A stretch of 64,000 nucleotides of DNA from Mesorhizobium sp. WSM2240. Its GTDB lineage: Bacteria > Pseudomonadota > Alphaproteobacteria > Rhizobiales > Rhizobiaceae. Below, piece by piece: positions 5,261-23,547 of the stretch (position 1 is its first letter; every line of letters begins with the position of its first letter). The notes under the pieces are model-generated. The model ran no database searches, was not told the origin of the DNA, and was given only the letters and a program-made list of their open reading frames with translations. Made by a program: the position numbers and the translations under genes. The stretch is taken from contig NZ_CP159256.1 of NCBI RefSeq assembly GCF_040438645.1, forward strand, positions 558,001 through 622,000. Direction: 5' to 3'.

Positions 5261-6730
5261 ATGTCGATCTTTGCAATTATTCTCCGGACAATCATGTCGG
5301 CTGTGTTGCTGTCAGTTTCGGCAGTTTGCGCCGGCGCGACCGCGCTGGGCGCTCAACCATCCGATCTGCCGAGGCGGCTTGCTATTGTGGTGGGCAATTC
5401 GGCCTATGAGAGCAAGCGGCTCGAGCATCTGCCAAATGCCGTAAACGATGCGACCAGGCTTTCGGAGACCTTGAAGAGGCTGAACTTCGATGTCCTGACC
5501 ACGACCAATGTGAAGTCGGAGGCGTTCAACCGTCTCCTGGTCGAAGCGGAGAGGAAGCTGCCGGCGGCGAGCGCGGTACTGATCTTCTATGCGGGTCACG
5601 GGATTCAGATCAAGGGAGAGAATTATCTGCTTCCGGTCGACACGCCCGATCCCGATAGCGTCGACAAGCTGACAGAACGCGCCATCAAGTTGAACGATGT
5701 TGTCGCGCGCTTCGCAAGCCGCGACCGTCAGACATTCGTTTTCCTTGACGCCTGCCGCAACAACCCGATGGGCCAAGAGGGCGGCAATGACGGTCTCGCC
5801 CAAGTAGAGGTCGGCGAAAACACGTTCATTGCCTTTGCTACCCAACCGGGAAACGCCACCGTGGACGGCGCCGGTGAAAACAGTCCGTTCACGACCGCTC
5901 TGCTCAAGAACATCGAAATCCCCGGCCTCAGTGTTTCCGACATGATGATCCGCGTTCGCAACGAAACCGAAGCCCTTACGCTCGGAAGGCAAGTCCCCTG
6001 GGATCAGTCGAACTTGCGCGAACAGTTCTATTTCACGGAGCAGCAGGTAATCGACCCGGCGCAACTGAGCGCCAGTCTTTCTCGAATCCTTTCCGATCCG
6101 GTGGCAAAGGAAAAGCTCCAAATCGAACTGGCGTCAAACGACTTGCAGACTGCAGTGCTCATCGTCGGGCAAGCGCTCCGCTCGGTCTCTCCGTCCGCTG
6201 TTCAGACCGTCGCCGAACTTCCCGGGGCGCCTGGCATACAGGTTGCGAGCCTCGACGCATCGCGCAGCATTGAAGGCGCACGGCGAAGCGTGGTCTCGGA
6301 TCTTGGCACGCTGATTGTGGGCGCTTCGACAAAGGACGGCGTCGAGGCGCAGACTGCGGAACTTGCGCGCAGCGTTCAGACAGAACTGCGCCGGCTGGGG
6401 TGTTACCGCATGGCGGTGGATGGAGACTGGGGCAAAGGTTCAGTACGCGCCCTCAATAATTTTTACGTCAACACCAAACAGGTTGCGGCGACGGCTGAGC
6501 CCACGGTCGAATTGCTGGGGGATCTATTCTTGCGTTCCGGCCGTATTTGCAAGCAGCCGGTGGTCGTCAAGAAGCCCCGGCAAACCAATGTGGCGTCGGA
6601 CGATGGTCGTAAGGCAACCCCCGGACTGAAGCGCAACCGTAAGAGCAGGGCCTCGGCGGCCCCAGCCCGCGCCCCGGCAGCGCCCCCACCGGACATCAGC
6701 AGCGGCATCGGCATAGGAGGGATCTTCTAG
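5261..6730 (+). CDS. Secreted caspase-fold (peptidase C14) protein with peptidoglycan-binding-like C-terminus
   Basis: Metacaspase/caspase-like peptidase predicted to act outside the inner membrane. Residues 1-31 look like a signal peptide (hydrophobic run MSAVLLSVSAVCAGA, then LGA). The C14 core runs from about residue 39 (RLAIVVGNSAYE) to 250. The catalytic dyad is visible: His113 in FYAGHG and Cys165 in FLDACRNNP. Residues about 365-430 resemble a peptidoglycan-binding_1 unit (VQTELRRLGCYRMAVDGDWG). The tail is Ala/Pro-rich and basic and ends in a Gly/Ile-rich stretch. The next gene, tssL, starts 228 bp downstream, and the gap holds only short Arg-rich frames. Substrates in alphaproteobacteria are unknown; caspases specific for Arg/Lys are the usual bacterial type. 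Start 5261 was chosen for the complete signal; 5294 is an alternative. Confidence 0.88.
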   Translation: MSIFAIILRTIMSAVLLSVSAVCAGATALGAQPSDLPRRLAIVVGNSAYESKRLEHLPNAVNDATRLSETLKRLNFDVLTTTNVKSEAFNRLLVEAERKLPAASAVLIFYAGHGIQIKGENYLLPVDTPDPDSVDKLTERAIKLNDVVARFASRDRQTFVFLDACRNNPMGQEGGNDGLAQVEVGENTFIAFATQPGNATVDGAGENSPFTTALLKNIEIPGLSVSDMMIRVRNETEALTLGRQVPWDQSNLREQFYFTEQQVIDPAQLSASLSRILSDPVAKEKLQIELASNDLQTAVLIVGQALRSVSPSAVQTVAELPGAPGIQVASLDASRSIEGARRSVVSDLGTLIVGASTKDGVEAQTAELARSVQTELRRLGCYRMAVDGDWGKGSVRALNNFYVNTKQVAATAEPTVELLGDLFLRSGRICKQPVVVKKPRQTNVASDDGRKATPGLKRNRKSRASAAPARAPAAPPPDISSGIGIGGIF

Positions 6731-6958: not shown

Positions 6959-8503
6959 GTGACCAGCAAGGATGATCCCTTCGCGTCGAAGGACAGTACG
7001 GTGATCCGTCCCGCTGGACCGAAGCAGGAACGGGAGCCTGCCAATCGGTCAGTGCCGTTTGTTGCCCCCTCGGAGCATTCGGCAGCGATTTCCCAGCCGA
7101 CCATCATTGCATCCCGCTCGCCCGAAATAGGGGAAGGTACATCCGAGGCCACAGTTATTTCGACAGGCCCGGCGTATTCGAGGGGTGCAGGGACACAAGA
7201 CAACGCTGAGCCGACGGTCATCGTGCAACCGGGCGCAGGGCCGCCGATGCCGAACAGCCAATCGCAAAAGACGAACCTCGAAGCGATTCTGGACGCACGC
7301 GCTGGCGCTCAGTATCCAAGCAGAAACCCACTCATCGCCGCCGCGGCCCCGCTTCTGCTTCTGCTTGGCCGCCTTCGCCTCGTTTCCGTCGAAGCTCAGG
7401 CGTCACCATTGATCGACCATGCCGCCGAAGCCGTCTCGGAATTCGAGCGCAGGTTGGCGCACGCGGGCAGTCCTTCCGACGAGTCCAGGATCGCAACTTA
7501 CGTGCTTTGCGAAACAGTGGACGATATCGCCCAGAGCCTGCCTGGCTGCGACAGGAAAGCCTGGACGGAGAGCGGCATGCTGGCGCGATTTTTCGAAGCG
7601 CGAACCTCGGGCGTGGGTTTTTTTGAGGCGCTGAACAAGATCCTCGCGAACCCGGCTCCGCACTACAACCTGCTGGAATTGATGCAGGTCTGCCTGAGCC
7701 TCGGTTTCAAAGGTCAATATCGTGGAATACCGGCAGGCGAAAGCGGCCTTGCCCGCGTGCGGACCGATGTCTACGAAACGCTGCGCTACCTCAAGCCGCG
7801 CGCGGACGACGAGATTGCCCCTCGCGCGATCTCCGCATCCCCAAAGGGCAGTTCGAACCGATTGCCGCTTTGGGCGATCCTGACGGGGGTAATCGTGCTG
7901 CTTGCCGGTATTTACCTCATCTTGCGGATCATGATTGAAAACGAGGCCGATGCGGCGGCCGAAACAATGCTGGCGCTGAACCCTTCCACGCCCATAGCGA
8001 TCCAACGCACCGCCGCCCCGTCACCGGCCGCGGTCCCCGACGAACTGCCGAGCCTCACGCAGATCAAACGGGTTCGTGCTGCGCTTGGAGCCCACCTCGC
8101 GAGCAAAGGAGTAGCGGTGCACGTAAAAAACGATTTCATCGTCGTTGAGATCAACAATCAGCTTCTGTTCGAACCCGGGATGGCCGACCTCAAACCGGAG
8201 TTCAGGCCCGTTGCAGAACGCATCACTGCAGCGTTGCGGCAGGAACCGGGACCTGTCACAATCGTCGGGCACACCGACAATGTGAAGCCGCGCAGTTCAA
8301 GCAGGTTCAAGTCGAACCTCGACCTCTCCGTTGCCCGCGCCACGGCCGTACAGAAGATGATCGCCGCCACGATCGGAGACTCTTCACGCCTGAGCGTCGA
8401 AGGCAGGGGCGATGGCGAGCCCATCGCCGACAATTCGACGCCGGAAGGCCGGGCACAGAACCGGCGCGTGGAATTGATGCTTCCGGTGGAGAAAACGCCG
8501 TGA
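6959..8503 (+). CDS. tssL: TssL/DotU (ImpK) T6SS membrane protein with C-terminal OmpA domain
   Basis: TssL forms the inner-membrane part of the T6SS envelope complex with TssM. The start is a GTG; no better ATG exists in frame. Residues 1-100 are disordered and Pro/Thr-rich, with four Thr-(Val/Ile)-Ile motifs at Thr14 (STVIRP), Thr48 (PTIIAS), Thr65 (ATVIST) and Thr86 (PTVIVQP). In Agrobacterium TssL, phosphorylated Thr14 is reported to bind the FHA protein, so these are candidate phospho-sites. The DotU cytosolic domain follows (about 120-280, beginning NPLIAAAAPLLLLLGRLR). Next comes one membrane helix (about 302-323) and a periplasmic OmpA-like domain (about 395-510, with IVGHTDNV and NRRVEL) that would bind peptidoglycan. 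It heads the run tssL-tssM-pppA-ppkA. Length is typical of rhizobial 'evolved' TssL proteins. Confidence 0.93.
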   Translation: MTSKDDPFASKDSTVIRPAGPKQEREPANRSVPFVAPSEHSAAISQPTIIASRSPEIGEGTSEATVISTGPAYSRGAGTQDNAEPTVIVQPGAGPPMPNSQSQKTNLEAILDARAGAQYPSRNPLIAAAAPLLLLLGRLRLVSVEAQASPLIDHAAEAVSEFERRLAHAGSPSDESRIATYVLCETVDDIAQSLPGCDRKAWTESGMLARFFEARTSGVGFFEALNKILANPAPHYNLLELMQVCLSLGFKGQYRGIPAGESGLARVRTDVYETLRYLKPRADDEIAPRAISASPKGSSNRLPLWAILTGVIVLLAGIYLILRIMIENEADAAAETMLALNPSTPIAIQRTAAPSPAAVPDELPSLTQIKRVRAALGAHLASKGVAVHVKNDFIVVEINNQLLFEPGMADLKPEFRPVAERITAALRQEPGPVTIVGHTDNVKPRSSSRFKSNLDLSVARATAVQKMIAATIGDSSRLSVEGRGDGEPIADNSTPEGRAQNRRVELMLPVEKTP

Positions 8504-8543
8504 GGCATGGCGCTCTCGAATCACCAAGCGTTCTGGCGCGTTC

Positions 8544-11500
8544 ATGAAATCCTGGCTGCTTGCGGTTGTCGCCGTCCCCGTTCTGATCTGTATCGCCGCC
8601 GCTGTATGGATCGCAGGCCCGCAAATCGGCTTCGGCGACGCGCGGCCTCTGCAATCCGGCCTGGCCCGCATGGTGATCGTCGCCCTTCTCCTTTTGGCAG
8701 CGGCCTATTTTGCGTTTCGCCTCACGCGTGGGTTTGCTGGCGGCAAGCGGAGCCTCACGGCCGCCGCCGGAAAAGAGCGCAAAGGCATCGACCCCGAAGG
8801 CCTTTCAAAGCGAATGTCCGATGCGCTCAAGCGGCTGGAACGGTCCAGCGGCAGACGCAGCGGCATCATCGACCTGCCCTGGTACGTTGTGATCGGCCCA
8901 GCTGGGTCCGGAAAATCCACTGCCATCGCCCATGGCAGCGAACTCCCGCTCAACGCACCCGTTGCTGTGGCCCCGACCCGCGATTGTGAATTGTTTTTGG
9001 CCGGCGAGGCGATGTTCGTCGACACCGCTGGCCCTCTGGCCATGCAGAACGGGTCGGCTGTCGACCGCAACAACTGGCTGGCCCTGCTGTCCTGGCTCAA
9101 AAAAAGTCGCGGCCGCCGGGCGGTTGATGGCATTATCCTTGTATTCAGCGTCGGCGACATGCTGACGCTCGGCCAGCCCCAGCGGGGCGAGCAGGCCGCC
9201 GCGCTGCGCAAGCGGCTACTGGAGATGCGCGAGGAACTCCAAGTCGCGCTCCCAGTCTACGTTCTTTTCACCAAGGCCGACTTCATCCCGGGTTTTTGGG
9301 AGTTCTTTGGTGCCTTCGATACGGCACGAAAGACCAAAGTCTGGGGCGCCACCTTCGCTCCGCACGATCTGAACGGCGCCACCAGCACGCAGGCGCAGGT
9401 CGAATTCGACGCGCTGGCCGCGCGCCTTTCGGAAGAGGTGACGGACCGGCTGCACGAGGAGCCCGATACTGCCGCGCGCGTGGCCATTTTCGATTTTCCC
9501 CAGCAGTTCGCGGCGTTGAAACAACAAGTGGTTGAGTTGCTGAACATGCTGACTTCCGGGAAGGATCAGCCGGTTGCAAATCTGCGCGGGTTCTTCTTTT
9601 CCTCCGCACTTCACGACAGGGCGAAGTATGGGCCACACGGCGAATGCGGCTATTTCCTTCGCGACCTCCTGGGAAAAATCATTCCAGCTGATTCCAGCCG
9701 GCATTTGCGGACTGCTGGCGGGCGTCACGCAGCCTTTCTGCGCTTTGCCAGCCTGGCCGCGGTGGCGCTGGTGAGCGCCGCGTTGCTGGGCGCATGGGCC
9801 GTCAGCTTCAGCAAAAACCGGTCGCTGATCGAAGCCACCACAACCGTGGCCGAAACGGTCGGGGCGGAGGAGCAACTCAGGAATGCCGCGGTCAGCGACG
9901 TGGACCTTGAGAACATTGTCGGTGTGCTGGCCATGCTGCGTGACGCTCCGGCCGGTTACGCAACTCGCGAAATGCCCACGCCGATCGAGGAAACGTTCGG
10001 CCTCAGCCAGCGCGGCAAGCTTCTTTCGGCTGCCGAAACTGCCTACCGGCAGGCGGCTGAACGGCTATTGCGTTCACGCCTCATATTGCAGACCGAGCAG
10101 ACAATACAAGCCAGCATTGGCGATCCGGGGATGCTTTACGAGCCGCTCAAAATATACCTCATGCTTGGCGGCCAAGCACCGCGGGTCGACGACGAACTGG
10201 TCATCGCCTGGTTCAAGCGCGATTGGGAGCAGAACCGGTATCCAGGCTCAGCCAACCGTGAAGGCCGGGAGGAACTCGAGACGCATCTGCGCGCCATGCT
10301 CGAGCTTGACGATGGCCAGGAGTATTCCTTCCTGATCGATCGCCCTCTGATCGAGGCAGCGCAAAGATCATTGTCGCGAATGGACGTGCAGGAGTTCGCC
10401 TGGGTTCAGATCAAGTCCGCCATCCATTCGGCGCAGCTTCAAGACTTTTCGCTTGTCGCCAACGCAGGTCCGCAAGCTGCACAGGTCTTGGAGACAGTGG
10501 ACGGTCGCGGGCTGGCGGCTCTGAAGGTGCCGGGCATCTACACCTATTCCGGCTTTAACGACTTTCTCCTGCCGCAGCTTGCGGCGGTTGCCACACGGGT
10601 GGTCGAGGATCAATGGGTAATGGGGGCCGGCGGCGAGCAGGTCGGCGTCGAGCAACAGTTGAAACGGCTCGGCCCGCTGCTGCTCGATCGCTATAGCAAG
10701 GATTTTATCGCAGCATGGGCCGACATGCTGGACGATTTGAAGCTGAAGCCGATGGCCGAGGACAGCCCGCAATACGTCTCGCTGGCGGCGGCATCCTCGG
10801 TGACATCGCCGATCCGGCTGCTCGTCGAAGCCATTTCCCGGGAGACCGGCGTGACACGAGTAGACGAAGGCGCGGCCGAATCTGACGAAACGGCCAAAAA
10901 GCGCACTGCCATGATTGAAGGCCTGGCGCGCATAGGCCTCGATATTTCGCAGGGCAAGTCTCAAGCGCGCGCGGGTGGCGCATTCGCCAAAACCATGTCG
11001 CAGGCGCCAGGGGCCGGTATCGAAATCCAGTTTCTGCCATTCCGGAGGCTGGTCGAAGGCGGTAGCGGGCGGCGGCCCATCGATGCTCTCGTCCAGAATT
11101 TCTATGAAATCTACCAGAGCTTGGTGCTGGTGGCCAACAGCCCGGCTCAAGCAGAGCGCGCGACCGCCAACCTGCAGCTCCAGGTTCTGAATTTGAGAGC
11201 AAACGCCTCGCGCCTGCCAAAGCAACTGGCCAGAATGATCAGTGCGGTGGCGGACGATCTCGAGGGCGATGTGGCAAGGAGCTCGCTAACGCAGTTGAGC
11301 AATGCGCTTGCCGAGGCGGTCACCGGGCCTTGCCAGGAGGTCGTAACCGACACCTATCCGTTCACGCGCACAAGCCCCCGCGACATATCTATTCCCGATT
11401 TTTCGAGGCTGTTCGCGCCGAACGGCGAGTTCGACCGCTTTTTCGCCCAGCACCTGGCGCCGCTCGCCGACATCGGCAACCCCGACTGGCAGTGGAGAGA

Positions 11501-11987
11501 GGACAGCCGCCTCGGCCGCAACCTGTCCATGTCGACGCTGAGATCCTTCCAGCATGCGGCAGCGATCCGCGATGCTTTCTTTCCGCAAGGAGAGGCTTTT
11601 CCGGCGATCGCCCTCACCTTCACGCCGTTCTCGCTGCACAGCGACGCCGACATGGCCTTGCTCAACATCAATGGACATATCGTGCAGAGCTACCAGGGCG
11701 GCAGTGCGCCGGCGAGCTTCAACTGGCCGGAGGAAGGCCATTCGAACGCGGTCAATCTCAGCCTATCGCCAGAAATCCCAGGCCGCGACTTCGAGGTAGA
11801 GTTCAAAGGGCCCTGGGCGCTGATGCGCCTGCTCGACACTGGTACGATCAGCCGCGACGGCGACAAACTGCAGGCGCGTTTTGTCATAGGCGGGCGTGAT
11901 GTCGCTTATACTATTGAGGTCGGCGCAAGGCAAAACCCCTTTCTTCTCGAATCTCTTCGGGAATTCACCTGCCCGGACGGCTTATGA
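8544..11987 (+). CDS. tssM: TssM/IcmF (ImpL) T6SS inner-membrane ATPase-like protein
   Basis: TssM spans the inner membrane and periplasm, binds TssL and TssJ, and forms the core of the T6SS membrane complex. The 1147-residue length is normal. Two N-terminal helices (about 4-26 and 40-60) are followed by a cytosolic GTPase-like domain. Its intact Walker A motif (GPAGSGKST, residues 118-126) means this is an ATP-binding type TssM. A third helix lies near residue 410 (SLAAVALVSAALLGAWAV). The remainder is the periplasmic IcmF-related region, including an IDALVQNFYEIYQSL segment and a C-terminal beta-rich TssM_C domain. It begins 40 bp after tssL, and its 3' end lies just ahead of pppA, so co-transcription is likely. 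Confidence 0.95.
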   Translation: MKSWLLAVVAVPVLICIAAAVWIAGPQIGFGDARPLQSGLARMVIVALLLLAAAYFAFRLTRGFAGGKRSLTAAAGKERKGIDPEGLSKRMSDALKRLERSSGRRSGIIDLPWYVVIGPAGSGKSTAIAHGSELPLNAPVAVAPTRDCELFLAGEAMFVDTAGPLAMQNGSAVDRNNWLALLSWLKKSRGRRAVDGIILVFSVGDMLTLGQPQRGEQAAALRKRLLEMREELQVALPVYVLFTKADFIPGFWEFFGAFDTARKTKVWGATFAPHDLNGATSTQAQVEFDALAARLSEEVTDRLHEEPDTAARVAIFDFPQQFAALKQQVVELLNMLTSGKDQPVANLRGFFFSSALHDRAKYGPHGECGYFLRDLLGKIIPADSSRHLRTAGGRHAAFLRFASLAAVALVSAALLGAWAVSFSKNRSLIEATTTVAETVGAEEQLRNAAVSDVDLENIVGVLAMLRDAPAGYATREMPTPIEETFGLSQRGKLLSAAETAYRQAAERLLRSRLILQTEQTIQASIGDPGMLYEPLKIYLMLGGQAPRVDDELVIAWFKRDWEQNRYPGSANREGREELETHLRAMLELDDGQEYSFLIDRPLIEAAQRSLSRMDVQEFAWVQIKSAIHSAQLQDFSLVANAGPQAAQVLETVDGRGLAALKVPGIYTYSGFNDFLLPQLAAVATRVVEDQWVMGAGGEQVGVEQQLKRLGPLLLDRYSKDFIAAWADMLDDLKLKPMAEDSPQYVSLAAASSVTSPIRLLVEAISRETGVTRVDEGAAESDETAKKRTAMIEGLARIGLDISQGKSQARAGGAFAKTMSQAPGAGIEIQFLPFRRLVEGGSGRRPIDALVQNFYEIYQSLVLVANSPAQAERATANLQLQVLNLRANASRLPKQLARMISAVADDLEGDVARSSLTQLSNALAEAVTGPCQEVVTDTYPFTRTSPRDISIPDFSRLFAPNGEFDRFFAQHLAPLADIGNPDWQWREDSRLGRNLSMSTLRSFQHAAAIRDAFFPQGEAFPAIALTFTPFSLHSDADMALLNINGHIVQSYQGGSAPASFNWPEEGHSNAVNLSLSPEIPGRDFEVEFKGPWALMRLLDTGTISRDGDKLQARFVIGGRDVAYTIEVGARQNPFLLESLREFTCPDGL

Positions 11988-12060
11988 CTTACTCCCCGCC
12001 CGAAGCTGTGGCAGATTGCGAAATCTGTTCTTGGCTGAACGGGAGAGGCTTGGAAGCAAG

Positions 12061-12828
12061 TTGAGCGAGGTCGCCCTCCAAATCGAAAGCTACGGCGTCA
12101 GTCACAAGGGCTGCGTACGCCTCGTCAATGAAGACAGGTTCCTGATCGAGCCACAGAGCGGGCTTTGGCTGGTCGCCGACGGCATGGGTGGACACGCTGC
12201 CGGCGAGGTCGCCTCGTCCAGCATCGTCGAGCACCTCGCTACGATTGGGGTGGCAAGCTCTGCGCCGGATCTGCGCGCGCGGTTTGAAGATCGGTTGAGC
12301 CGCGCCCATGACGAAATCCGCAAGCTGTCGCAAGCGCGCGGCGCGACGATCGGCTCCACCATCGCCGCCCTTTTGGCAATGGAGGGCCGCTTCGCCTGCC
12401 TGTGGTCGGGCGACAGCCGCGTCTATCTGGTGCGCGAAGGGGCGATAACCCAGCTTTCGCGCGATCACACCGAGGTTCAAGAACTCCTTGATCGAGGCGT
12501 CCTAAGTCCGGCGGAAGCACGAACCTGGCCGCGGCGCAACGTCATCACGCGCGCCGTCGGCGTCACCGAGGAGATCGTCATCGATTTCCAACAGGGCGAA
12601 ACATTGCCGGGCGACATTTTTGTGCTTGGCACGGATGGATTGACCTCGCATGTAGCAGATGCGGAAATCGAGGCTGCGGTGACATCGGCGGCACCCGAGG
12701 ATGCCTGCGGACATCTCCTGGATACCGTGCTTTCGCGGGGCGGCACGGATAATGTGACCATTGTGGTGGTGCGCTTCACAGGAGCTGAACAGGCACCTTC
12801 CACCCGCGCTGCCGGCAACGGATCGTGA
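12061..12828 (+). CDS. pppA: PppA-type PP2C serine/threonine protein phosphatase
   Basis: This phosphatase would oppose the adjacent PpkA kinase in post-translational control of the T6SS. PP2C motifs appear in order: NEDRF, LWLVADGMGGH (metal-binding Asp-Gly), GSTIAALL, WSGDSRVYLVREG, LGTDGLT and GGTDNVTIVVV. The frame is open back to 11896, inside tssM, but homologous content begins only near SYGVSHKGCVRLVNED. I therefore chose the TTG at 12061, which follows an AAGCAAG/GGAAG ribosome-site-like stretch and leaves 73 bp after tssM; this start is uncertain. No TagF fusion is visible, unlike the Agrobacterium TagF-PppA arrangement. The gene ends 7 bp before ppkA. Confidence 0.93.
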   Translation: MSEVALQIESYGVSHKGCVRLVNEDRFLIEPQSGLWLVADGMGGHAAGEVASSSIVEHLATIGVASSAPDLRARFEDRLSRAHDEIRKLSQARGATIGSTIAALLAMEGRFACLWSGDSRVYLVREGAITQLSRDHTEVQELLDRGVLSPAEARTWPRRNVITRAVGVTEEIVIDFQQGETLPGDIFVLGTDGLTSHVADAEIEAAVTSAAPEDACGHLLDTVLSRGGTDNVTIVVVRFTGAEQAPSTRAAGNGS

Positions 12829-12835
12829 CAGCACT

Positions 12836-14992
12836 ATGAGTTCCGACGACAAGACCAGATTCCTGCCCGAAGCGGGCCGGGTGACAATTGGCACCCAACT
12901 CAGCGGGATTTACGAACTCGACGAGCACCTCGCGTCGGGCGGCATGGGAGAAGTGTATCGCGGCCACAACATTCAAACCGGCGACCTGGTTGCGATCAAG
13001 ATCGTGCTGCCCGAATTTTCCCGCGACCAGACCATTCTGTCTCTGTTTCGCAAGGAAGCCTCCGTTCTCAACCACCTGTCGCACGATGCTGTGGTGCGTT
13101 ACCACGTCTTCACAATCGACCCGGGCATTGGCCGACCCTACCTGGCCATGGAATTCGTAAACGGCGAGAGTCTCCACGATGTGATCCGGCGGGGGCCGAT
13201 GCCGACCGAACAAGTTCGCAGGCTGTGCCTGCGCCTTGCCGACGGACTGAGCGCGGTTCACGGAGCCAATACTTTCCATCGCGACCTCTCGCCGGACAAC
13301 ATCATCTTGCCGAGCGGGCGCGTCGAGCGCGCCAAGATCATCGACTTCGGCATCGCCCGGTCGGCCAAGATCGGAGACGGAACCCTGATCGGGGGACGCT
13401 TCGCCGGAAAATACAATTACGTTTCGCCCGAGCAGTTGGGCCTTTATGGCGGCGAAGTCAGCGAGCAGTCCGACATATACAGTCTTGGATTGGTGCTTGC
13501 GGCGGCGCTCCGGGGAGCACCTATCGACATGGCCGGGTCGCAATCGGAAGTGGTCGACAAGCGCCGCATGCTGCCGGACCTCTCTGGGATCGATGAGTCA
13601 TTGCGACCGCTTCTGGTTTCCATGCTGCAACCGGACCCGAAAAACCGGCCAGCCAGTATGGCGGAGATCGTCGAGATTGCGCGGATCGGCCTTAGCGGGA
13701 GCCAAACTCCCAGTCCGGCCCTGTGGGGCGGCGAGGCGGACACGAGGCAACTGCATCAAATACCCGTCTCTCACCAGCCATCGATCGAAAGCCGGCTGCC
13801 GGGCATGCCTTCGCCGTCACCGCAATCAAGGTCGGCCGGGAGCCCAGAACCTTGGGACCCGGCGAGAGCAAGCCCGAGAAATTTCGTGCCGCACGCACCG
13901 CCAGCGCTCCGCGGCCAGCCGCCGCCAGCCACGGCGAATGGTGCACCCATCGATCGCACGCGTTCGAAGTCCACTCGTGTCCTGATTATTGCCGGACTGG
14001 CCGCTATCGCCCTAATTGCCGGAGCCGGTGGCTATTTCGGTGGCCTTTTCGACCCGACTCCGCCCCCTGACATTTCTGATCCTGCTCCAGCAGAACCGCC
14101 TGTCGCCGAGGCGCCTGAGGAGACGGACGTGCTGTCGCAAGCCGATTCTGCCCAAGCTCCCGTCAGTGGACGAGAAGCAGCAGACAAACCGTCCGCCGAT
14201 ACTGGCCCTCCGCCGCCAGAGCAGCTGCAGACAGAAAAAGAGATTGTCGAACAGCCAGCTGAGCAGAAAGCTGCAGTCCCAGAGGAGGAGGTTCCAGGTC
14301 CGGATGAGGATGTTGCAGTCCTGGATCCGGCCAGGCAGGCTCCCGCTGCCGAGGCGCTAGATGGCGTCGCAGAACGGATTTCGTGGCTTCGCAACTATCC
14401 TGGCGGCGACTGTTTCTATGCCATCGCGACTTCGGCCGCCGACACTGCGATCGAGATCGAGGGGTTCGGAACCACTGTTGAGCCTTTCATGGAAATGCTC
14501 ACCGACTTTCAGGCGAAGTTCGGCTTCGAACCTGAGATAGGTGTGCGGCTCATCGAGCCGGCGCAATGCGTCATTACGGATTTCATGCGTGGCCTCGGCG
14601 GTGCTGCCGAGGCGCCTCAACTTACTCTCGACCGGACGTCGGTGCCGAGCGGTTCTGCGGTCAGCGGGGAACTGGAAATGCCGGAGGGCCGCAGTTCGAA
14701 CCTCTTGCTGATCGATCACAGGGGCATGGTGTTCAATCTCGACAGCCGCTTGATCGGGGCGCCTAACAAGGCCTCGTTCAGCATCCCAATCGGTCTCAGC
14801 GCGACAGACGCCGCTGCGGGCCAGGCTGTTCCGCAGGTTATTGTCGCGGTTACCTCCCCGGACGGCATCGACGCCGCCGAAATCTCCAAGCCGAGACCGG
14901 CCGCCGAGGTGTTTCCAGGCATTCTTTCTGAAATTCAGGCCAGGAAGCTTGTAAGCGGAGCCACCGCCAAATATTTCCGGCTCGGCGGTTAA
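12836..14992 (+). CDS. ppkA: PpkA-type transmembrane serine/threonine protein kinase
   Basis: Hanks-type kinase expected to phosphorylate T6SS components such as TssL. The kinase domain spans about residues 26-290: Gly loop ASGGMGEVYRG, Lys55 in VAIKI, catalytic Asp150 in HRDLSPDN, DFG Asp170, then SPEQLGLYGG. A Pro-rich linker precedes one transmembrane helix (about 381-403). A second acidic Pro/Glu-rich linker, presumably periplasmic, leads to a terminal domain (about 512-718) beginning WLRNYPGGDCFYAI. That domain is recognisably the same as the C-terminal domain of the TonB-like protein encoded immediately downstream on the opposite strand. This differs from Pseudomonas PpkA, which carries a von Willebrand domain. 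The ATG at 12836 was chosen over the upstream frame start because it lies 7 bp after the pppA stop and gives a normal kinase N-terminus. Confidence 0.94.
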   Translation: MSSDDKTRFLPEAGRVTIGTQLSGIYELDEHLASGGMGEVYRGHNIQTGDLVAIKIVLPEFSRDQTILSLFRKEASVLNHLSHDAVVRYHVFTIDPGIGRPYLAMEFVNGESLHDVIRRGPMPTEQVRRLCLRLADGLSAVHGANTFHRDLSPDNIILPSGRVERAKIIDFGIARSAKIGDGTLIGGRFAGKYNYVSPEQLGLYGGEVSEQSDIYSLGLVLAAALRGAPIDMAGSQSEVVDKRRMLPDLSGIDESLRPLLVSMLQPDPKNRPASMAEIVEIARIGLSGSQTPSPALWGGEADTRQLHQIPVSHQPSIESRLPGMPSPSPQSRSAGSPEPWDPARASPRNFVPHAPPALRGQPPPATANGAPIDRTRSKSTRVLIIAGLAAIALIAGAGGYFGGLFDPTPPPDISDPAPAEPPVAEAPEETDVLSQADSAQAPVSGREAADKPSADTGPPPPEQLQTEKEIVEQPAEQKAAVPEEEVPGPDEDVAVLDPARQAPAAEALDGVAERISWLRNYPGGDCFYAIATSAADTAIEIEGFGTTVEPFMEMLTDFQAKFGFEPEIGVRLIEPAQCVITDFMRGLGGAAEAPQLTLDRTSVPSGSAVSGELEMPEGRSSNLLLIDHRGMVFNLDSRLIGAPNKASFSIPIGLSATDAAAGQAVPQVIVAVTSPDGIDAAEISKPRPAAEVFPGILSEIQARKLVSGATAKYFRLGG

Positions 14993-15074
14993 CAAAACCG
15001 GCACGCTCCCGGCCGCTTCCCGCGTTCTGGCCCACGCAGCCTCACGGCAGCTCGGCTTGGCCTTGCTGCTCAGG

Positions 15075-16637
15075 TCAGCGGACGATGAACGATGCGACCC
15101 CGAAATCCACCTGGTTGCCCTGCTTCAGTATTTCCTTGCGCAACTGTTCGAAATACGGCTGTGCCTGCGTGCCCTCATGGACTGCAAAAGTGAGCAACGG
15201 ATGATCGCTGGCGATCGCAAGAAGCAGTTGGACAGTCCCTACCGGGCCGTCGGTCAGGGTGAGTGGAGCCCGGAATGATACTGTATTTCCGGCCTCGGGC
15301 ATGAGATCCTGCAATTCCTGTACCTTGCCATCGTCATCGATGATGATCAGGTAGAGCCACCTACGGCGGAAATTGTGGATACGGCCCGTTAGCATCTCAC
15401 CGCTCCTGACTTCCGGCCTGGCAGTTTGTACGGGGAGAGGCTGTTCAGGATAAGCAGCGAGATCACTGGCGAAGGTAAGCGCTGCACACTGCGCATCGGC
15501 GACGAGATGACCACGAACTGCGGCGGGCGTCTCGATCAATTGACTGATGCGGCGACCAAGTTCAACGGTCCGCTCAACAGTGGCGGCATATCCGTTCACC
15601 TCGATCACATTGCCACGCGCTGAAGCCAGAGCCAGGAAGCACTGACGGGGCTCGGAAGACAGAAAATCCAGCAGCTTGGCGTAGCTCTGCCTCGGCGTTT
15701 CCGTGGGCGGAAGGGGGTCTGGAGGGCTAGGCCGGAGAAGCGCAACGGTCTGCTCAGGATCGGTAGGCGTGGCCGCGTCGAGCTTGATGCGAGGAGCGGA
15801 TTTGACGGCGATTTGGCGACCGGCTGCATTCACATGCGCCCGGTTCTGATGCCTGCGCAGTCTCGCACGACTTGCCCGGGGCGCCGTTGCTACCGGATGG
15901 CGCTGTACGACCTGGGCTGACGCAATTGCCTGCGGCTGCGCGCGCACAGCAGGAGGTGGGGACTGCGGCCGGACCGCATTCGCGGTGCTGTTTGGACGCA
16001 ACGCAGGCACGCTTGGCGCGGAGGGCTCGGCGACGACGTGCTGCCGCTGTTGGGCGATTGGCAGCTGCCGAGGATCAGAAGCGCGCTCTGGCGACGCTGC
16101 CGATACGGCGCGCGCTGGCTGGGACGGCTGGACGGTTTGAGCGGCAGCCCGGCGCCTGGATGCAGGTGCCGCGCGAAAACTCGGCGGTGCTGGCCTGGCC
16201 GCGTCAGTTGCTGCCACCGCGGCCAATCGTTGTGCTTGGGTCGGCACACGCTTCGCGTGGCTTTGTGCCTCGGGCTGCACGCGGCCAGCAGTGGGCGGCG
16301 CTTGCTGCGCGACGGCGCTGACCGCAACTGCTGTGAGTTGTTTGCGCACCCGGCCGGTATCCTCGACGTGCTCGGGCGTCGCTTGGACAGCCTTGAGCGG
16401 CTTCTTCTCCGCTGTCGGAGCCGCCTTTCGCGAGGATGCCGTCTGCCAGGATTTCGGCATAACAGATGCTTTTTTCGCCAATGAGCGCGGCGTCGACTGA
16501 ACCGTAATAAGGGTCTTTGCTGCCGGTTTGCTATCGGTTTGTGGGATCGCCATCAGGGATGCGACAAGGGCGGCATGGATCGCCAGCGAAGCGCAAATAG
16601 CGATGCCCCAGAGAGCTATTTCCGATCTCTGCCTCAC
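15075..16637 (-). CDS. TonB-like energy-transducer protein carrying the PpkA-type C-terminal module
   Basis: Last gene of the ExbB-ExbD-ExbD operon and so in the place of TonB/TolA. Residues 1-9 are polar, then one membrane helix (about 10-32, ALWGIAICASLAIHAALVAS) carries a buried His21, which recalls His20 of TonB. Residues about 35-300 are a long Ala/Pro/Arg-rich, low-complexity span suited to crossing the periplasm. The C-terminal 200 residues do not match the TonB_C or TolA fold by eye. Instead they align with the PpkA tail: CFLALASARGNVIEVNGYAA versus CFYAIATSAADTAIEIEGFG, followed by a shared Gln-Cys and a (Y/L)LI-ID--G motif. The two genes are convergent, 82 bp apart. The ATG at 16637 overlaps the preceding exbD stop by 4 bp. 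Role is inferred: a PMF-driven periplasmic transducer connected with the T6SS kinase. Confidence 0.7.
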   Translation of the reverse strand: MRQRSEIALWGIAICASLAIHAALVASLMAIPQTDSKPAAKTLITVQSTPRSLAKKASVMPKSWQTASSRKAAPTAEKKPLKAVQATPEHVEDTGRVRKQLTAVAVSAVAQQAPPTAGRVQPEAQSHAKRVPTQAQRLAAVAATDAARPAPPSFRAAPASRRRAAAQTVQPSQPARAVSAASPERASDPRQLPIAQQRQHVVAEPSAPSVPALRPNSTANAVRPQSPPPAVRAQPQAIASAQVVQRHPVATAPRASRARLRRHQNRAHVNAAGRQIAVKSAPRIKLDAATPTDPEQTVALLRPSPPDPLPPTETPRQSYAKLLDFLSSEPRQCFLALASARGNVIEVNGYAATVERTVELGRRISQLIETPAAVRGHLVADAQCAALTFASDLAAYPEQPLPVQTARPEVRSGEMLTGRIHNFRRRWLYLIIIDDDGKVQELQDLMPEAGNTVSFRAPLTLTDGPVGTVQLLLAIASDHPLLTFAVHEGTQAQPYFEQLRKEILKQGNQVDFGVASFIVR

Positions 16638-17053
16638 GGGGCTTTCCCAGCGCTTCGGCCCTGCGCATGCAGTGTCACGATACGGACGGGAACATTGGCG
16701 GTGTTGATGCGCGCAAGGATGTCCACAAACTTGTCCGCCTGCACCGTGCGTTCGGCGAGAATATTGAGGAACTGGCTATTGTCCGCAGCTTTCCTGGCTG
16801 CACCGGGCAACGCGTCCATCGACACAGGGGCACCATCGAGAAATAGCGACCCGTCCGCGGTCACAAGCAGCAGAGGCCGGGGGAGATGATCCAGCGGCAA
16901 GTGCTGCGTCAGAGGCACGTCGGTCATCAGTTCGCCTTGGGTTATCAGGCGTCCGGTTGCCAGATAAAACAGCAGGAGAAGAAATACGATATTGATGACA
17001 GCCAGCGAGAAGTCGGGCCGCCGCCGCTTCGGGCGGGAAGGAATATAGTTCAC
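16634..17053 (-). CDS. exbD: Second ExbD/TolR-family protein, channel Asp replaced by Asn
   Basis: ExbD-family subunit with a short basic cytoplasmic N-terminus, one membrane helix (about 15-34) and a periplasmic domain of about 100 residues. In canonical ExbD/TolR the helix reads Leu-Ile-Asp-Val/Met-x-Phe-Leu-Leu-Leu and the Asp carries protons. Here the matching sequence is VINIVFLLLLFYL, with Asn21 at that place. The companion ExbD at 17050-17478 keeps the Asp. The start codon overlaps the end of that gene by 4 bp (ATGA) and its own 3' end overlaps the TonB-like gene by 4 bp, so translation is coupled throughout. A mixed ExbD dimer with one active site is a reasonable inference, not shown. 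Confidence 0.85.
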   Translation of the reverse strand: MNYIPSRPKRRRPDFSLAVINIVFLLLLFYLATGRLITQGELMTDVPLTQHLPLDHLPRPLLLVTADGSLFLDGAPVSMDALPGAARKAADNSQFLNILAERTVQADKFVDILARINTANVPVRIVTLHAQGRSAGKAP

Positions 17054-17478
17054 CGGGCGCTCCCACTGGCGTTCACCAGTGCCACATTGTCCGCCTCAGC
17101 CACTTTGAGAGCCTCAAGCGTGGCAACGATATCCTGAACTGTCGCCCGACCGGTGCAGATTACCAGGAAACTTTGAACCCCATGCGAGACCAGCCCTGCG
17201 ACTTGTGAAGTCACATCGTCGGCAGCAATCCGTTGACCACCGATAGTTACGAAGCCTCGGGAGACGCGGATCGCAAGAACATAGGGCGTCACTGCGCCGG
17301 TCGAGGGCCTTTCGTCGGAGAGGCCGGCAAGATTTCCCATTGGAAGCAGGGAGTATGGCGCCATCTGCGACGACAGCATGAAAAACATCAGCAGCAAGAA
17401 CATGACATCGATCAGGGATGTCAGCACAAACGTCGGGCGGATCTTTCCGGCTTGCCTATGTTTCAGGGCTTGGCCCAA
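17050..17478 (-). CDS. exbD: ExbD/TolR-family biopolymer transport protein
   Basis: Proton-channel partner of ExbB. A basic N-terminus (residues 1-14) precedes one transmembrane helix with the conserved acidic site, Asp24 in SLIDVMFLLLMFFM. The periplasmic domain follows with the usual beta strands (a GQRIAADDV segment) and a conserved VQDIVATLEALKVA stretch near the end. It is 17 bp after exbB and overlaps the next exbD-like gene by 4 bp. Length (142 residues) is normal. The substrate system cannot be told from this subunit alone; the operon partner is an atypical TonB-like protein rather than a TolA or a classical TonB. Confidence 0.9.
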   Translation of the reverse strand: MGQALKHRQAGKIRPTFVLTSLIDVMFLLLMFFMLSSQMAPYSLLPMGNLAGLSDERPSTGAVTPYVLAIRVSRGFVTIGGQRIAADDVTSQVAGLVSHGVQSFLVICTGRATVQDIVATLEALKVAEADNVALVNASGSAR

Positions 17479-17495
17479 CGTCGAATCCCCGGCGA

Positions 17496-18194
17496 TCAGG
17501 CCGCATCAGGCTGCGTGGCGGCGCTGAGATCAAACTGGCTTCCCGCCGTGCCGCCCTCGCAGGTAAGTGACCCCTGCTCGTCGAATAGTACCGCACCGAT
17601 GGCCGTTTCCATCGTGGCGCGCTCGTTCTCCACGCGCGCTTCGAGCCACACCCAGACAAAGTAGAAGGGAATTGCGATCCCCAAGCCGGCCGCCGTAGTC
17701 AGCAATGCCGCCCAGATGCCGGTCGCCAGCGCTGAGGGATCGACCGCACCTGCGCTCCTCGACAATTCACCGAAGGCCGAGATCATCCCGATGACCGTGC
17801 CGAGCAGTCCCATCATAGGCGCGGCCTGAACCACCGATTCCAGGATACGAAGGTAGCGGGTCATTGCTGCGATTTGGTCAAGCGCTGTGTGTCCGGCGAT
17901 TTCTTGCGCCCGTTGCCGGTCCCCGGGATGGAGCAGCAGGGACTGTATCGCACTTGAGACGGTTGCAGAGGTGGGCGACGTCTCCTTCTTGGCCTCGTTC
18001 AGCGCGCGAGCCCGGTCTCCCGACGACCATATCAAAATCGCGCTCCGCGCGGCGCGCGAGCGGCCGACGCCGATGCGGGCAAACTGGACGACCTTGAAAA
18101 TAGCAACAGCTGTTGCCGCGATTGAGACCGCAAACAGCGCGATAAGGACCGGCCCGCCGGCTGAACCCAATTGACTGATCAGAACGTCAATCAT
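17496..18194 (-). CDS. exbB: ExbB/TolQ/MotA-family proton channel protein
   Basis: Forms the pentameric stator that converts proton flow into motion of an ExbD/TonB-type partner. Three membrane segments are visible: near the N-terminus (GGPVLIALFAVSIAATAVAIF), and the pair after residue 110 with the family signatures PMMGLLGTVIGMISAF and GIWAALLTTAAGLGIAIPFYF. The cytoplasmic loop between helices 1 and 2 is of ordinary size. I start at the ATG at 18194, giving a 10-bp gap from the upstream gene; a start 21 bp further upstream would overlap that gene's stop and add a short polar leader. Second gene of a five-gene minus-strand operon. Confidence 0.93.
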   Translation of the reverse strand: MIDVLISQLGSAGGPVLIALFAVSIAATAVAIFKVVQFARIGVGRSRAARSAILIWSSGDRARALNEAKKETSPTSATVSSAIQSLLLHPGDRQRAQEIAGHTALDQIAAMTRYLRILESVVQAAPMMGLLGTVIGMISAFGELSRSAGAVDPSALATGIWAALLTTAAGLGIAIPFYFVWVWLEARVENERATMETAIGAVLFDEQGSLTCEGGTAGSQFDLSAATQPDAA

Positions 18195-18204
18195 GGCGGC
18201 CCCG

Positions 18205-18633
18205 CTACAGCCCAAAGTTAATCGAGGTACGCGTCGTCGTTTTCAAGGCGTCAATGCAGATCGTGGCATTTTTGCCATCAGCCACACATTCGGTGACATC
18301 GTTGATCAGGAGCCGCGAGATCGCGTTGCAGGCCTGGTCTGCGAGGTCGAATTGAACGACTTTGGTCTTGCCAGCCGGAAGTCGGCCGAATTCGAACACC
18401 AGCGCCTCTGCGACCTTGCCTTGCCCATCAAAGGTGAAGACGTCGAAGGACGCCTTGTCGAGGAGCACCCCGGTTACATTCAGGGCGACGAAAGAAAGCC
18501 TGCACCCGCCCTTCAGATCAACCGCTTCGTTGAGCTCAATAGAAAGCGCCTTTTCCTGAGCAACCGCACTAGCCGGCGTCGTGCAAAGGCTCGACGCTGC
18601 CATCATGCCGCATAGCAAGTTGCGAAAGGCCAT
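18205..18633 (-). CDS. Small exported protein of unknown function, first gene of the ExbBD operon
   Basis: I do not recognise a family. The ATG at 18633 follows a clear GAGGAG ribosome site about 8 bases upstream and opens with a signal peptide (FRNLLCGMMAASSLCTTPASA). The frame extends a further 30 codons upstream, but those residues lack export features. The mature part (about 115 residues) is beta-rich and has four Cys (in GGCRL, QACN, TECVA and TICID) that could form two disulphides. It ends in TSINFGL. The gene ends 10 bp before exbB, so it is probably a periplasmic accessory of the ExbBD/TonB-like machine. The divergent DUF1036 gene shares the 218-bp upstream region. Confidence 0.75.
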   Translation of the reverse strand: MAFRNLLCGMMAASSLCTTPASAVAQEKALSIELNEAVDLKGGCRLSFVALNVTGVLLDKASFDVFTFDGQGKVAEALVFEFGRLPAGKTKVVQFDLADQACNAISRLLINDVTECVADGKNATICIDALKTTTRTSINFGL

Positions 18634-18851
18634 ATGTGCATCTCCTCGCAACGCCGCGCTTGCAGAAACGCAAGCTCTGGTCTGCTCGACGATTTTGGCA
18701 GCATGGCAAGAATGTTCACGCACGCCAGAACCACCGTCGGGCAGTTTGCGATGATTGTTCTACTTCATCAAGGCTTTGCTTATTGGCGATGCTCATTAAT
18801 AATACGTTCGTCTATTGCGGGCGGGATTCTGCCTGCAGCAAGGGCTTCGCA

Positions 18852-19307
18852 ATGATGGAACCGTCGCGATGGTTGCCTGCCTGGTTGGGCTACCAAGGAG
18901 GCTCGACCGCCGGAGCTATCGCTCTGGTTCTCGCCATCTTCGCGCCAACGGCTGCAAGAGCCGAATTCACGGTCTGCAATCAGACGCTGGACGTCGTCAA
19001 TCTGGCCGTAGGACAGCAGATCGAAAGCGCGTTCCAGACCGAAGGGTGGTGGACGGTCGGCGCCAATCAGTGCGTCAACGTCATTCGCGAGGAACTTGGC
19101 AACCGGTACATCTATGTCTACGCTACCGACGTGTTCGGGCATCCGATCCTCAGCGGTTCGACCGACATGTGCGTCGAGCGGCGGCGCTTCACCATCCGTG
19201 GAATCGGCGAGTGCTGGCAACGCGGACACATCGCCGCCGCCTTCTATGAAGTGGACACGCGTGAGCAGGCCCGATGGACCCTGTTCCTCTCCGGGCGCGG
19301 TCCATGA
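18852..19307 (+). CDS. Exported DUF1036-family protein
   Basis: DUF1036 proteins are small Cys-containing secreted proteins common in Rhizobiales, without a settled function. After the signal segment (TAGAIALVLAIFAPTAARA) the mature protein begins EFTVCNQTLDVVNLAVGQ. It contains the typical GWWTVGANQCVNV and YIYVYATDVFG stretches and a later pair of Cys. The frame is open back to 18636, but the AAGGG-preceded ATG at 18852 (or 18855) gives the signal peptide directly. It overlaps the next gene by 4 bp (ATGA), so the two are translationally coupled; this ties it to peptidoglycan remodelling. Confidence 0.88.
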   Translation: MMEPSRWLPAWLGYQGGSTAGAIALVLAIFAPTAARAEFTVCNQTLDVVNLAVGQQIESAFQTEGWWTVGANQCVNVIREELGNRYIYVYATDVFGHPILSGSTDMCVERRRFTIRGIGECWQRGHIAAAFYEVDTREQARWTLFLSGRGP

Positions 19308-22503: not shown

Positions 22504-23547
22504 ATGACAATCACTCTGACTATCGTCAATGTCGATCTTCTGCCGAGCGGGGCGCCGGCGTTCTTCCAGACGGCGAACCGCTCGTTCCAGGTCGGACGAG
22601 ATCCCAATCTCGACTGGACCCTGCAGGACCCTTCACGTCAAATCTCAAGCCGGCACTGCGAAGTTCGATTCGAAAGCGGGGCCTACTGGCTGTATGACCG
22701 TTCAACCAACGGAGTGTTCGTGAACGGATCAACTGAACGGATGCGGGGCGTGCACCGGCTTAACAATGGCGATCGTTTGCAAATTGGGCCGTATGTCATC
22801 GACGTCATGATCGCTGGCGATGACGGAGGTCTCCAGATACCGCCCACTGTGCAGGGGGAGCCAACAGCACCAGCGTTCGACCGGCCCGGTGCGATTAGCG
22901 CGAGCACTGCCGCCAAGGCGGGAGGAGTGAATGAAGTCTCCCAGCGGTCGATGCCGGTGAGCGGGACCCAACCTGCCCTCCAGCCTGGATCGTTTCTCGA
23001 AGCATTTTGCGCGGGCGCAGGCGTTCCTTCGGATCTGTTCGCGTCGCGTGACCAGACAGAACTTGCCTACGAGCTCGGCGAATTTGTGAAACTGACCGTC
23101 GAGAACCTTAGCCAAATGCTGAGGTCGCGCGCTTCAGCCAAGGCGATAATCAAAAGTTCGAGCCGGACTGTCATCGGCTCGACCGACAACAACCCCCTGA
23201 AACACGTGCCAGCGAGCGCCGAAGCGATCGAGTCGATGTTCACTCGCAAGCGGGTTGGCTATCTCAACGCGCGGCGCAGCCTTGAAGAAGCATTTAAAGA
23301 TCTCCAGACGCACGAACAGGCGACATACGCGGCTATGCAGAAGGCGCTGGCGAAGCTGCTCGACCAACTTGCCCCCGAAACCATAGAGTTGGCGGTGAAG
23401 GGATCGCCCTTCGTCCCGAAAAAGGCGCGGGCCTGGGACCTTTTCGTCGAGCGATGGGAGGAGCAGAATGCAGGCGAGAACGGCATGCTGGACCCGTTTC
23501 TGGCACATTTTGCAGATGCCTACGACGAAGCCACCAGCAAGAGCTAG
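22504..23547 (+). CDS. fha: T6SS FHA-domain protein (TagH/ImpI/Fha type)
   Basis: Phosphothreonine reader of the T6SS post-translational switch. The FHA domain occupies about residues 5-95 with the canonical contacts: Gly31-Arg32, Ser49-Arg50-His51 in QISSRHCEV, and Asn69-Gly70 in STNGVFVNG. A linker leads to the T6SS-specific C-terminal domain (about 160-345), recognisable from NPLKHVPASAEAIESMF and from RRSLEEAFKDLQTHEQATYAAMQ given as separate adjacent parts RRSLEEAFKDL and QTHEQATY. The ATG at 22504 follows GGAGAAAGCG at good spacing; the longer frame from 22339 has no such site. Most likely ligands encoded here are the TssL N-terminal Thr motifs phosphorylated by PpkA. It is unlinked to the tssL-ppkA operon but within the same locus. 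Confidence 0.93.
   Translation: MTITLTIVNVDLLPSGAPAFFQTANRSFQVGRDPNLDWTLQDPSRQISSRHCEVRFESGAYWLYDRSTNGVFVNGSTERMRGVHRLNNGDRLQIGPYVIDVMIAGDDGGLQIPPTVQGEPTAPAFDRPGAISASTAAKAGGVNEVSQRSMPVSGTQPALQPGSFLEAFCAGAGVPSDLFASRDQTELAYELGEFVKLTVENLSQMLRSRASAKAIIKSSSRTVIGSTDNNPLKHVPASAEAIESMFTRKRVGYLNARRSLEEAFKDLQTHEQATYAAMQKALAKLLDQLAPETIELAVKGSPFVPKKARAWDLFVERWEEQNAGENGMLDPFLAHFADAYDEATSKS

What the first reader, a model, noticed from the sequence alone, without database searches (positions are those of the whole stretch)
14371..18194. ExbB-ExbD-ExbD-TonB-like machine inside a T6SS locus, sharing a new C-terminal module with the PpkA kinase
Seen: a coupled operon exbB-exbD-exbD-tonB-like converges on ppkA. 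The TonB-like protein (one TM helix with His21, long Pro/Ala span) ends in a domain of about 200 residues that aligns with the periplasmic tail of PpkA (Cys-Phe-x-Ala-x-Ala start, I-E-x-x-G-(Y/F), Gln-Cys, (Y/L)LI-ID--G, similar last 25 residues). Known: ExbBD/TonB and TolQR/TolA transmit proton-motive force to the envelope; PpkA kinases sense and control T6SS assembly. Inference: the two proteins may bind the same periplasmic ligand or each other, so that a PMF-driven transducer feeds the kinase switch. I know of no described T6SS with such a module.
Basis: partly seen in the sequence, partly recalled or inferred. Interest (0 to 1): 0.78.

Follow-up and report, generated by a model that had tools for sequence, protein, structure and literature searches.

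The report
Proton-powered transducer paired with T6SS kinase
Next to the switch kinase of a bacterial secretion weapon sits a small proton-powered envelope machine whose outer end is a relative of the kinase's own sensor domain, and the pairing recurs in distant alphaproteobacteria, which suggests an unrecognised way to power or trigger the weapon.

Summary
The roughly 205-residue ends of PpkA and of the TonB-like protein ("TonX") are homologous: BLASTP E 3e-11; profile-profile probability 99.92, E 3.6e-35, with at most 1.02% in 14 control comparisons. The domain models well (pLDDT 91.9) and matched no Pfam or NCBIfam family.

The true unit is five genes: secreted protein, exbB, exbD1, exbD2, tonX. 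I saw exbD1-exbD2-tonX in 26 genomes, one from another order. It faces ppkA tail-to-tail in 15; in 4 exbD2 and tonX follow ppkA on its own strand. Of 17 cassette genomes among 297 family genomes, 16 have TssK; overall 71 of 297 do.

New: ExbD1 keeps the membrane Asp in 26 of 26, ExbD2 has Asn there in 26 of 26, other ExbDs Asp in 9 of 9. TonX keeps a TonB-like membrane His.

Most likely it is a dedicated proton-motive transducer acting on PpkA's periplasmic sensor or its ligand. The genomic link is solid; the mechanism is inferred. Literature novelty is weakly checked: only two paper searches were answered.

The parts
12836..14992 (+). PpkA-type Ser/Thr kinase, 718 aa; kinase domain about 26-277, one TM near 379-402, acidic/Pro linker, periplasmic tail
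   Evidence: Pfam Pkinase 138 bits; TM and linker read from the sequence; named PpkA from its context beside PP2C and T6SS genes
14369..14989 (+). PpkA periplasmic tail, residues 512-718, homologous to the TonX tail
   Evidence: BLASTP E 3e-11; hhalign E 3.6e-35; 194 proteins with this tail at E up to 0.001, 120 listed
15075..16637 (-). TonX, TonB-like protein, 520 aa: TM with Ser17 and His21, linker of 292 residues (35% Pro+Ala), tail of about 205 residues
   Evidence: No family match; TM and linker; relatives
15078..15692 (-). TonX tail: alpha-beta-beta-alpha-beta-alpha half, then an Ig-like beta sandwich
16634..17053 (-). ExbD2, ExbD-like with Asn in place of the TM Asp
   Evidence: PF02472 40.9 bits; Asn in 26 of 26; aligned with PDB ExbD 7ajq
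17050..17478 (-). ExbD1, ExbD-like with the TM Asp
   Evidence: PF02472 40.2 bits; Asp in 26 of 26; aligned with PDB ExbD 7ajq
17496..18194 (-). ExbB/TolQ-like channel protein
   Evidence: PF01618 96 bits; PDB ExbB, TolQ and MotA by sequence
18205..18633 (-). Small secreted (periplasmic) protein, about 142 aa, four Cys; constant first gene of the cassette
   Evidence: Seen with the cassette in 23 of 26 genomes; alignment; beta-sandwich model, pLDDT 70.7 from four sequences; signal peptide judged by eye
11968..12828 (+). PppA-like PP2C phosphatase (start codon uncertain)
   Evidence: PF00481 and PF13672; NF033484 at 195 bits, below its cut-off of 230
6959..11987 (+). TssL (DotU + OmpA) 6959-8503 and TssM 8544-11987, the second such pair of this locus
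   Evidence: PF09850, PF00691, PF06761, PF14331, PF06744; first pair in L082
18852..21616 (+). DUF1036 protein 18852-19307 and M23 peptidase with an SLT-like stretch 19274-21616
   Evidence: PF06282, PF01551; both recur in many relatives
22507..23547 (+). TagH-type FHA protein, possible substrate of the kinase (inferred)
   Evidence: TIGR03354 at 258.6 bits, cut-off 120.25; PF20232 and PF00498

Best explanation
The five genes encode a dedicated TonB/Tol-type energy transducer of one branch of alphaproteobacterial T6SS. ExbB should form the channel (by homology a pentamer). ExbD1, with the proton-carrying Asp, and ExbD2, with a fixed Asn, should form an obligate heterodimer inside it, so that the motor would have one working proton site. 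TonX is the TonB/TolA analogue: its TM His couples it to the motor, and its long linker lets it reach across the periplasm. Its end domain is a relative of the periplasmic sensor of PpkA. The most likely action is that TonX, driven by proton-motive force, competes for, delivers or pulls on the periplasmic partner of that sensor (the co-encoded secreted protein is the first candidate), or pairs with the PpkA tail itself, and so sets kinase activity, FHA phosphorylation and T6SS assembly. Shown: genes, homology of the tails, recurring gene content, key residues, association with T6SS. Inferred: stoichiometry, force, the partner and the effect on the kinase.
For: Tail homology E 3.6e-35 with 14 controls at or under 1.02%. 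Cassette in 26 genomes, tail-to-tail with ppkA in 15, exbD2 and tonX behind ppkA on its strand in 4, with the gene set kept through that rearrangement. 16 of 17 cassette genomes in the family sample have TssK against 71 of 297 overall (Fisher p 4e-10 by genome, 0.004 by genus). ExbD1 Asp 26 of 26, ExbD2 Asn 26 of 26, nine other ExbDs from six of these genomes Asp. TonX TM His 26 of 26. The secreted-protein gene also lies near or against tail-bearing ppkA without exbBD or tonX in the stretch read in G050 and G500, which suits a ligand of the tail.
Against: No experiment. 19 of 36 tail-positive family genomes have the kinase tail but no cassette in the stretch read. In the four g21 genomes the cassette is not beside ppkA. 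In G466 no exbB or secreted-protein gene was seen in the locus. The ExbB position that is Glu in PDB ExbB 6ye4 varies (Ala, Val, Thr or Glu), so the motor is not canonical. The cassette is patchy: 8 changes on a kinase tree of 49 rows. Association counts are not corrected for descent.
Confidence: 0.5

Rival explanations
1. The transducer serves the structural side of the T6SS: it anchors the membrane complex or energises opening of the envelope, together with the M23 hydrolase and the DUF1036 protein. The tail is a common envelope-binding domain, and PpkA merely uses the same docking site.
For: M23 and DUF1036 genes recur beside the cassette; in genus g21 the cassette sits with DUF1036 (four of four) and M23 (three of four) and not with ppkA. 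In G319 both lie between the cassette and the ppkA end. TssJ was found in none of 14 of the 17 family-sample cassette genomes.
Against: DUF1036 and M23 also accompany ppkA in loci without the cassette (for example L071, L074, L076-L079). The tail homology is to the kinase. TssJ is missing in many cassette-free relatives too: 13 of the 18 cassette-free genomes.
Confidence: 0.27
2. The two tails are parallel sensors of one periplasmic or outer-membrane signal without direct cross-talk: PpkA reads it for T6SS control, and TonX-ExbBD transports or clears it, much as a TonB system handles a substrate.
For: The tails form two old groups on the tail tree (2 label changes over 77 labelled rows; one TonX clade not rejected, AU p 0.234). 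The kinase functions without TonX in many genomes.
Against: The close and repeated adjacency to ppkA, including ppkA-exbD2-tonX on one strand in g215, suggests more than a shared ligand. No receptor or transporter gene was seen as a constant neighbour, but I scored only the 15 window-type profiles in those stretches.
Confidence: 0.15
3. It is an ordinary TonB-ExbBD nutrient-uptake system that happens to lie in the T6SS locus.
For: ExbB, two ExbDs and a TonB-like TM protein are present; operons with two exbD genes are known from Xanthomonas (recalled).
Against: No TonB_C match (at E up to 1; at E up to 10); the tail is homologous to the kinase's; the cassette goes with T6SS; six of these genomes have other, canonical ExbDs elsewhere.
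Confidence: 0.05

Closest known systems
TonB-ExbB-ExbD and TolA-TolQ-TolR energy transducers
   Same: ExbB/TolQ-like channel protein, ExbD/TolR-like proteins, and a single-TM protein with Ser-x3-His in the TM and a long linker into the periplasm
   Different: Two ExbDs with a fixed Asp/Asn split; no match to a TonB C-terminal family; the output domain is a relative of a kinase sensor; bound to T6SS loci
Xanthomonas TonB-ExbB-ExbD1-ExbD2 and Myxococcus AglR-AglQ-AglS (both recalled, not fetched)
   Same: One ExbB/TolQ-type protein with two ExbD/TolR-type proteins
   Different: Other clients (iron uptake, gliding); whether their second ExbD lacks the Asp was not checked here
Pseudomonas T6SS threonine phosphorylation pathway, TagQRST-PpkA-Fha-PppA (recalled; the paper could not be opened)
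   Same: Kinase, PP2C phosphatase and FHA protein beside T6SS genes; the kinase has a periplasmic part that envelope proteins could control
   Different: Here a proton-motive transducer and a secreted protein lie beside the kinase, and the periplasmic part is a different domain with no VWA match

Membership tests
ExbB/ExbD (TolQ/TolR) energy transducers | ExbB matches MotA/TolQ/ExbB (PF01618) and ExbDs match ExbD/TolR (PF02472) over the curated cut-offs | tested here: met
   96 bits against 22.9; 40.2 and 40.9 against 25.4
ExbB/ExbD (TolQ/TolR) energy transducers | Conserved Asp in the ExbD TM helix: ExbD1 | tested here: met
   Asp in 26 of 26 rows; aligns with Asp25 of PDB ExbD 7ajq
ExbB/ExbD (TolQ/TolR) energy transducers | Conserved Asp in the ExbD TM helix: ExbD2 | tested here: not met
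   Asn in 26 of 26 rows; aligns with Asp25 of 7ajq
ExbB/ExbD (TolQ/TolR) energy transducers | Five-to-two channel complex that uses proton-motive force | not testable with these tools
   Only monomer prediction was on hand
TonB/TolA | N-terminal TM helix with Ser-x3-His (importance recalled) | tested here: met
   His in 26 of 26 rows, Ser four residues before it in 21, Ala in 5
TonB/TolA | Long periplasmic linker, Pro-rich in TonB | tested here: met
   Linkers of 184-508 residues in the 24 rows measured; Pro+Ala 17-46%, window 35% (L049 and L138 not measured correctly)
TonB/TolA | TonB C-terminal domain (Pfam TonB_C) | tested here: not met
   No match for the window protein at E up to 1 nor for 20 tails at E up to 10; HMMER's filters drop most weak matches, and the first half of the fold was hardly tested
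TonB/TolA | Works on a TonB-dependent receptor or on Tol-Pal | not tested
   No receptor search was made
T6SS threonine phosphorylation pathway | Kinase, PP2C phosphatase and T6SS FHA protein in a T6SS locus | tested here: met
T6SS threonine phosphorylation pathway | VWA domain in the periplasmic part of PpkA (recalled for Pseudomonas) | tested here: not met
   No VWA family in the Pfam scan of the 718-aa protein at E up to 1
T6SS threonine phosphorylation pathway | TagQRST upstream of the kinase | not tested
   No search for TagQRST was made

The most novel reading that the evidence does not exclude
A proton-driven motor with a single-site ExbD1/ExbD2 heterodimer is wired, through a duplicated sensor domain, to a membrane kinase, so that envelope energisation or tension is converted into phosphorylation that arms the T6SS. 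Neither a kinase client of an ExbBD/TonB-type motor nor an obligate Asp/Asn ExbD pair is known to me (recall, not a literature test).
Probability: 0.33. Interest if true: 0.87.

Novelty: new variant of a known kind. Interest (0 to 1): 0.73.

Why it matters
The known clients of ExbBD-type motors are few (from recall: TonB receptors, Tol-Pal, gliding, flagellar stators). A conserved motor whose output domain is a relative of a kinase sensor would add signalling to that list and give the T6SS a direct link to proton-motive force. The invariant Asp/Asn ExbD pair is a natural experiment on whether these motors need one or two proton sites. All of it can be tested by gene deletion in non-pathogenic soil bacteria.

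Tried and rejected
Replacement of TssJ by the cassette: TssJ was found in only 3 of 17 family-sample cassette genomes (the window, G002, G082) and in none of the 7 order-sample ones, but 13 of the 18 cassette-free genomes also lack it. The kinase tree gives only two independent pairs on supported branches (TssJ labels assigned by hand). I treat the correlation as shared ancestry.

Caspase-like neighbour (5261-6730) as a third carrier of the tail: none seen in its sequence by eye, and no tail match there.

Order-level search: 34 of 397 genomes matched, but of 28 new loci three (L105, L108, L110) show no tail by the profile and are probably chance. Of the 34 genomes, 21 were read at contig or 20-kb scale (19, plus G000 and G022); the other 13 were seen only as short stretches or a table row, so the count of cassettes there is a lower bound. 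In some searches only 8-10 candidates a genome were scored.

A sigma-70/terminator scan of 14800-19000 gave one promoter-like match (mean 0.9 in shuffles) and ten terminator-like ones (mean 4.1), none of use.

Failed calls: the genome search 12 and 13 gave no usable answer (I went on with other settings); the search for homologous proteins 33 timed out; paper searches and paper reads 87, 88, 96, 100 failed or timed out; one search had a wrong frame.
Full report
What is there. The window lies in a T6SS locus of an alphaproteobacterium. A genome of the same genus in the sample, G002, has a contig of the same length (18,109 bases) as the record titled Mesorhizobium alhagi, NZ_AHAM01000285.1. On the + strand run a caspase-like gene, TssL (DotU + OmpA), TssM, a PP2C phosphatase and a Ser/Thr kinase. 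On the - strand, converging on the kinase, runs secreted protein - exbB - exbD1 - exbD2 - tonX. Two GTGA overlaps and gaps of 17 and 10 nt suggest one coupled unit; the ppkA and tonX stop codons are 82 bp apart. Beyond it lie DUF1036, an M23 peptidase, OmpA and a TagH-type FHA protein.

How widespread. Searches with the TonX tail matched 36 of 297 genomes of the family and 34 of 397 of the order; a profile matched 2 of 385 of the class, one of them the window's own genome. Reading contexts gives 26 genomes with exbD1-exbD2-tonX: 17 of the 297 (the window's included), 7 more from the order sample, Chelativorans salis and G926 of another order. ExbB and the secreted protein are seen in 23 of 26; in G268 and G352 the contig ends first, and in G466 they are absent from the locus. 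Position relative to ppkA: 15 tail-to-tail; 4 (genus g215) rearranged so that exbD2 and tonX follow ppkA on its strand and face secreted protein-exbB, with exbD1 nearby; 1 (G319) with M23 and DUF1036 between, its tonX in two contig pieces; 4 (genus g21) away from tssLM-pppA-ppkA (on other contigs in G022, G208 and G311; in G263 the kinase was not found by this query); 2 cut by contig ends (G106, G352). Survival of the gene set through rearrangement is the best evidence that it works as a set.

Link to T6SS. TssK occurs in 71 of 297 family genomes, in 16 of 17 cassette genomes and in 35 of 36 tail-positive genomes (I take the two samples of 297 to be the same, as their handles agree). Of the 7 order-sample cassette genomes 6 have TssK; G926 has TssL and TssM beside the cassette. 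The two without TssK, G106 and G352, are drafts with the cassette on contigs of 11.7 and 3.1 kb; C. salis was not tested for TssK but has pppA and ppkA beside the cassette. Fisher p is 4e-10 by genome and 0.004 by genus, not corrected for descent. The converse does not hold: in 19 of 36 tail-positive family genomes the one tail found is the kinase's, and no cassette lies in the stretch read (in G061 and G213 the contig ends near ppkA). On a kinase tree of 49 rows the cassette needs 8 changes, at least 3 of them forced by well-supported branches; on the TssM tree 6. The cassette is therefore an accessory, gained or lost several times.

The motor. ExbD1 has Asp at the position of Asp25 of PDB ExbD 7ajq in 26 of 26 rows, and ExbD2 has Asn in 26 of 26; nine other ExbDs from six of these genomes, all that one search found besides the cassette's, have Asp. 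A fixed Asn rather than drift suggests an obligate heterodimer with one proton site (inference). The ExbB position that is Glu in PDB ExbB 6ye4 (E. coli Glu176, recalled) is Ala, Val, Thr or Glu across rows. TonX keeps the TM His in 26 of 26 rows and Ser four residues before it in 21 (Ala in L052, L053, L054, L136 and L139); linkers run from 184 to 508 residues with 17-46% Pro+Ala. For L049 the automatic TM pick was wrong and the TM was read; L138 is a fragment. The role of His and Ser in TonB and TolA is recalled.

The secreted protein. About 142 residues with its signal peptide, four Cys, well conserved. Its model, from only four sequences (pLDDT 70.7), is a beta sandwich, nearest IrmA 5ek5 (E 7.5e-4, TM 0.52). 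In G050 and G500 it lies near or against tail-bearing ppkA without exbBD or tonX in the stretch read (G500 is a 4.4-kb contig), which makes it a candidate ligand of the tail. Its database search could not be made.

A second membrane module. Upstream of the window the same locus has a sheath protein, Hcp, TssF, TssJ, TssK and another TssL-TssM pair and FHA protein, with one TssK and one TssJ in the genome. The window's TssM groups with those of relatives in which no TssJ was found. So the kinase, the cassette and the second TssL-TssM may have come together from such a system (inference).

Interpretation. I favour a dedicated proton-motive transducer acting at the PpkA periplasmic sensor. The structural rival keeps weight because g21 cassettes sit with DUF1036 and mostly M23. 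An ordinary TonB system is unlikely.

Literature. Two paper searches were answered: type VI secretion + ExbB + ExbD + PpkA gave one paper on a food-spoilage Pseudomonas (listing only); type VI secretion + Mesorhizobium + PpkA gave three (listing only). In one of these, PMC12565851, I searched for terms and saw passages: PpkA serves there as an expression reporter, and ExbB, TonB and TssJ do not occur. The later searches failed, so novelty rests on the missing Pfam and NCBIfam families and on my own knowledge.

Noticed in passing
window 6959-11987 and L082:8748-13623 (G000:C4:538001-558000): The T6SS locus has two TssL-TssM pairs and two TagH-type FHA proteins but one TssK and one TssJ. The window's TssM nests among those of relatives without TssJ, the other is far off on a long branch: a second, perhaps captured, membrane module.
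   Followed up: partly
window 5261-6730; L012, L044, L055, L061 and others: A caspase-like (Peptidase C14) gene recurs beside these T6SS modules (17 ORFs over E 1e-3 in the 41 loci); role unknown.
   Followed up: no
window 18852-21616: DUF1036 and an M23 peptidase with an SLT-like stretch travel with tail-bearing ppkA with or without the cassette (26 and 25 matching ORFs in the 41 loci): a likely cell-wall module of this T6SS branch.
   Followed up: no
L140:1-1649 (G500) and L064:16672-17232 (G050): The secreted-protein gene lies against or near tail-bearing ppkA without exbBD or tonX in the stretch read.
   Followed up: partly
whole genomes: Many T6SS of this order with tail-bearing PpkA have no TssJ match anywhere in the genome (19 of 40 genomes, 20 of 25; not all of these have a tail or one T6SS only).
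   Followed up: partly
window 17496-18194 and other cassettes: The ExbB position that is Glu in PDB ExbB 6ye4 is Ala, Val, Thr or Glu in the cassette family.
   Followed up: no
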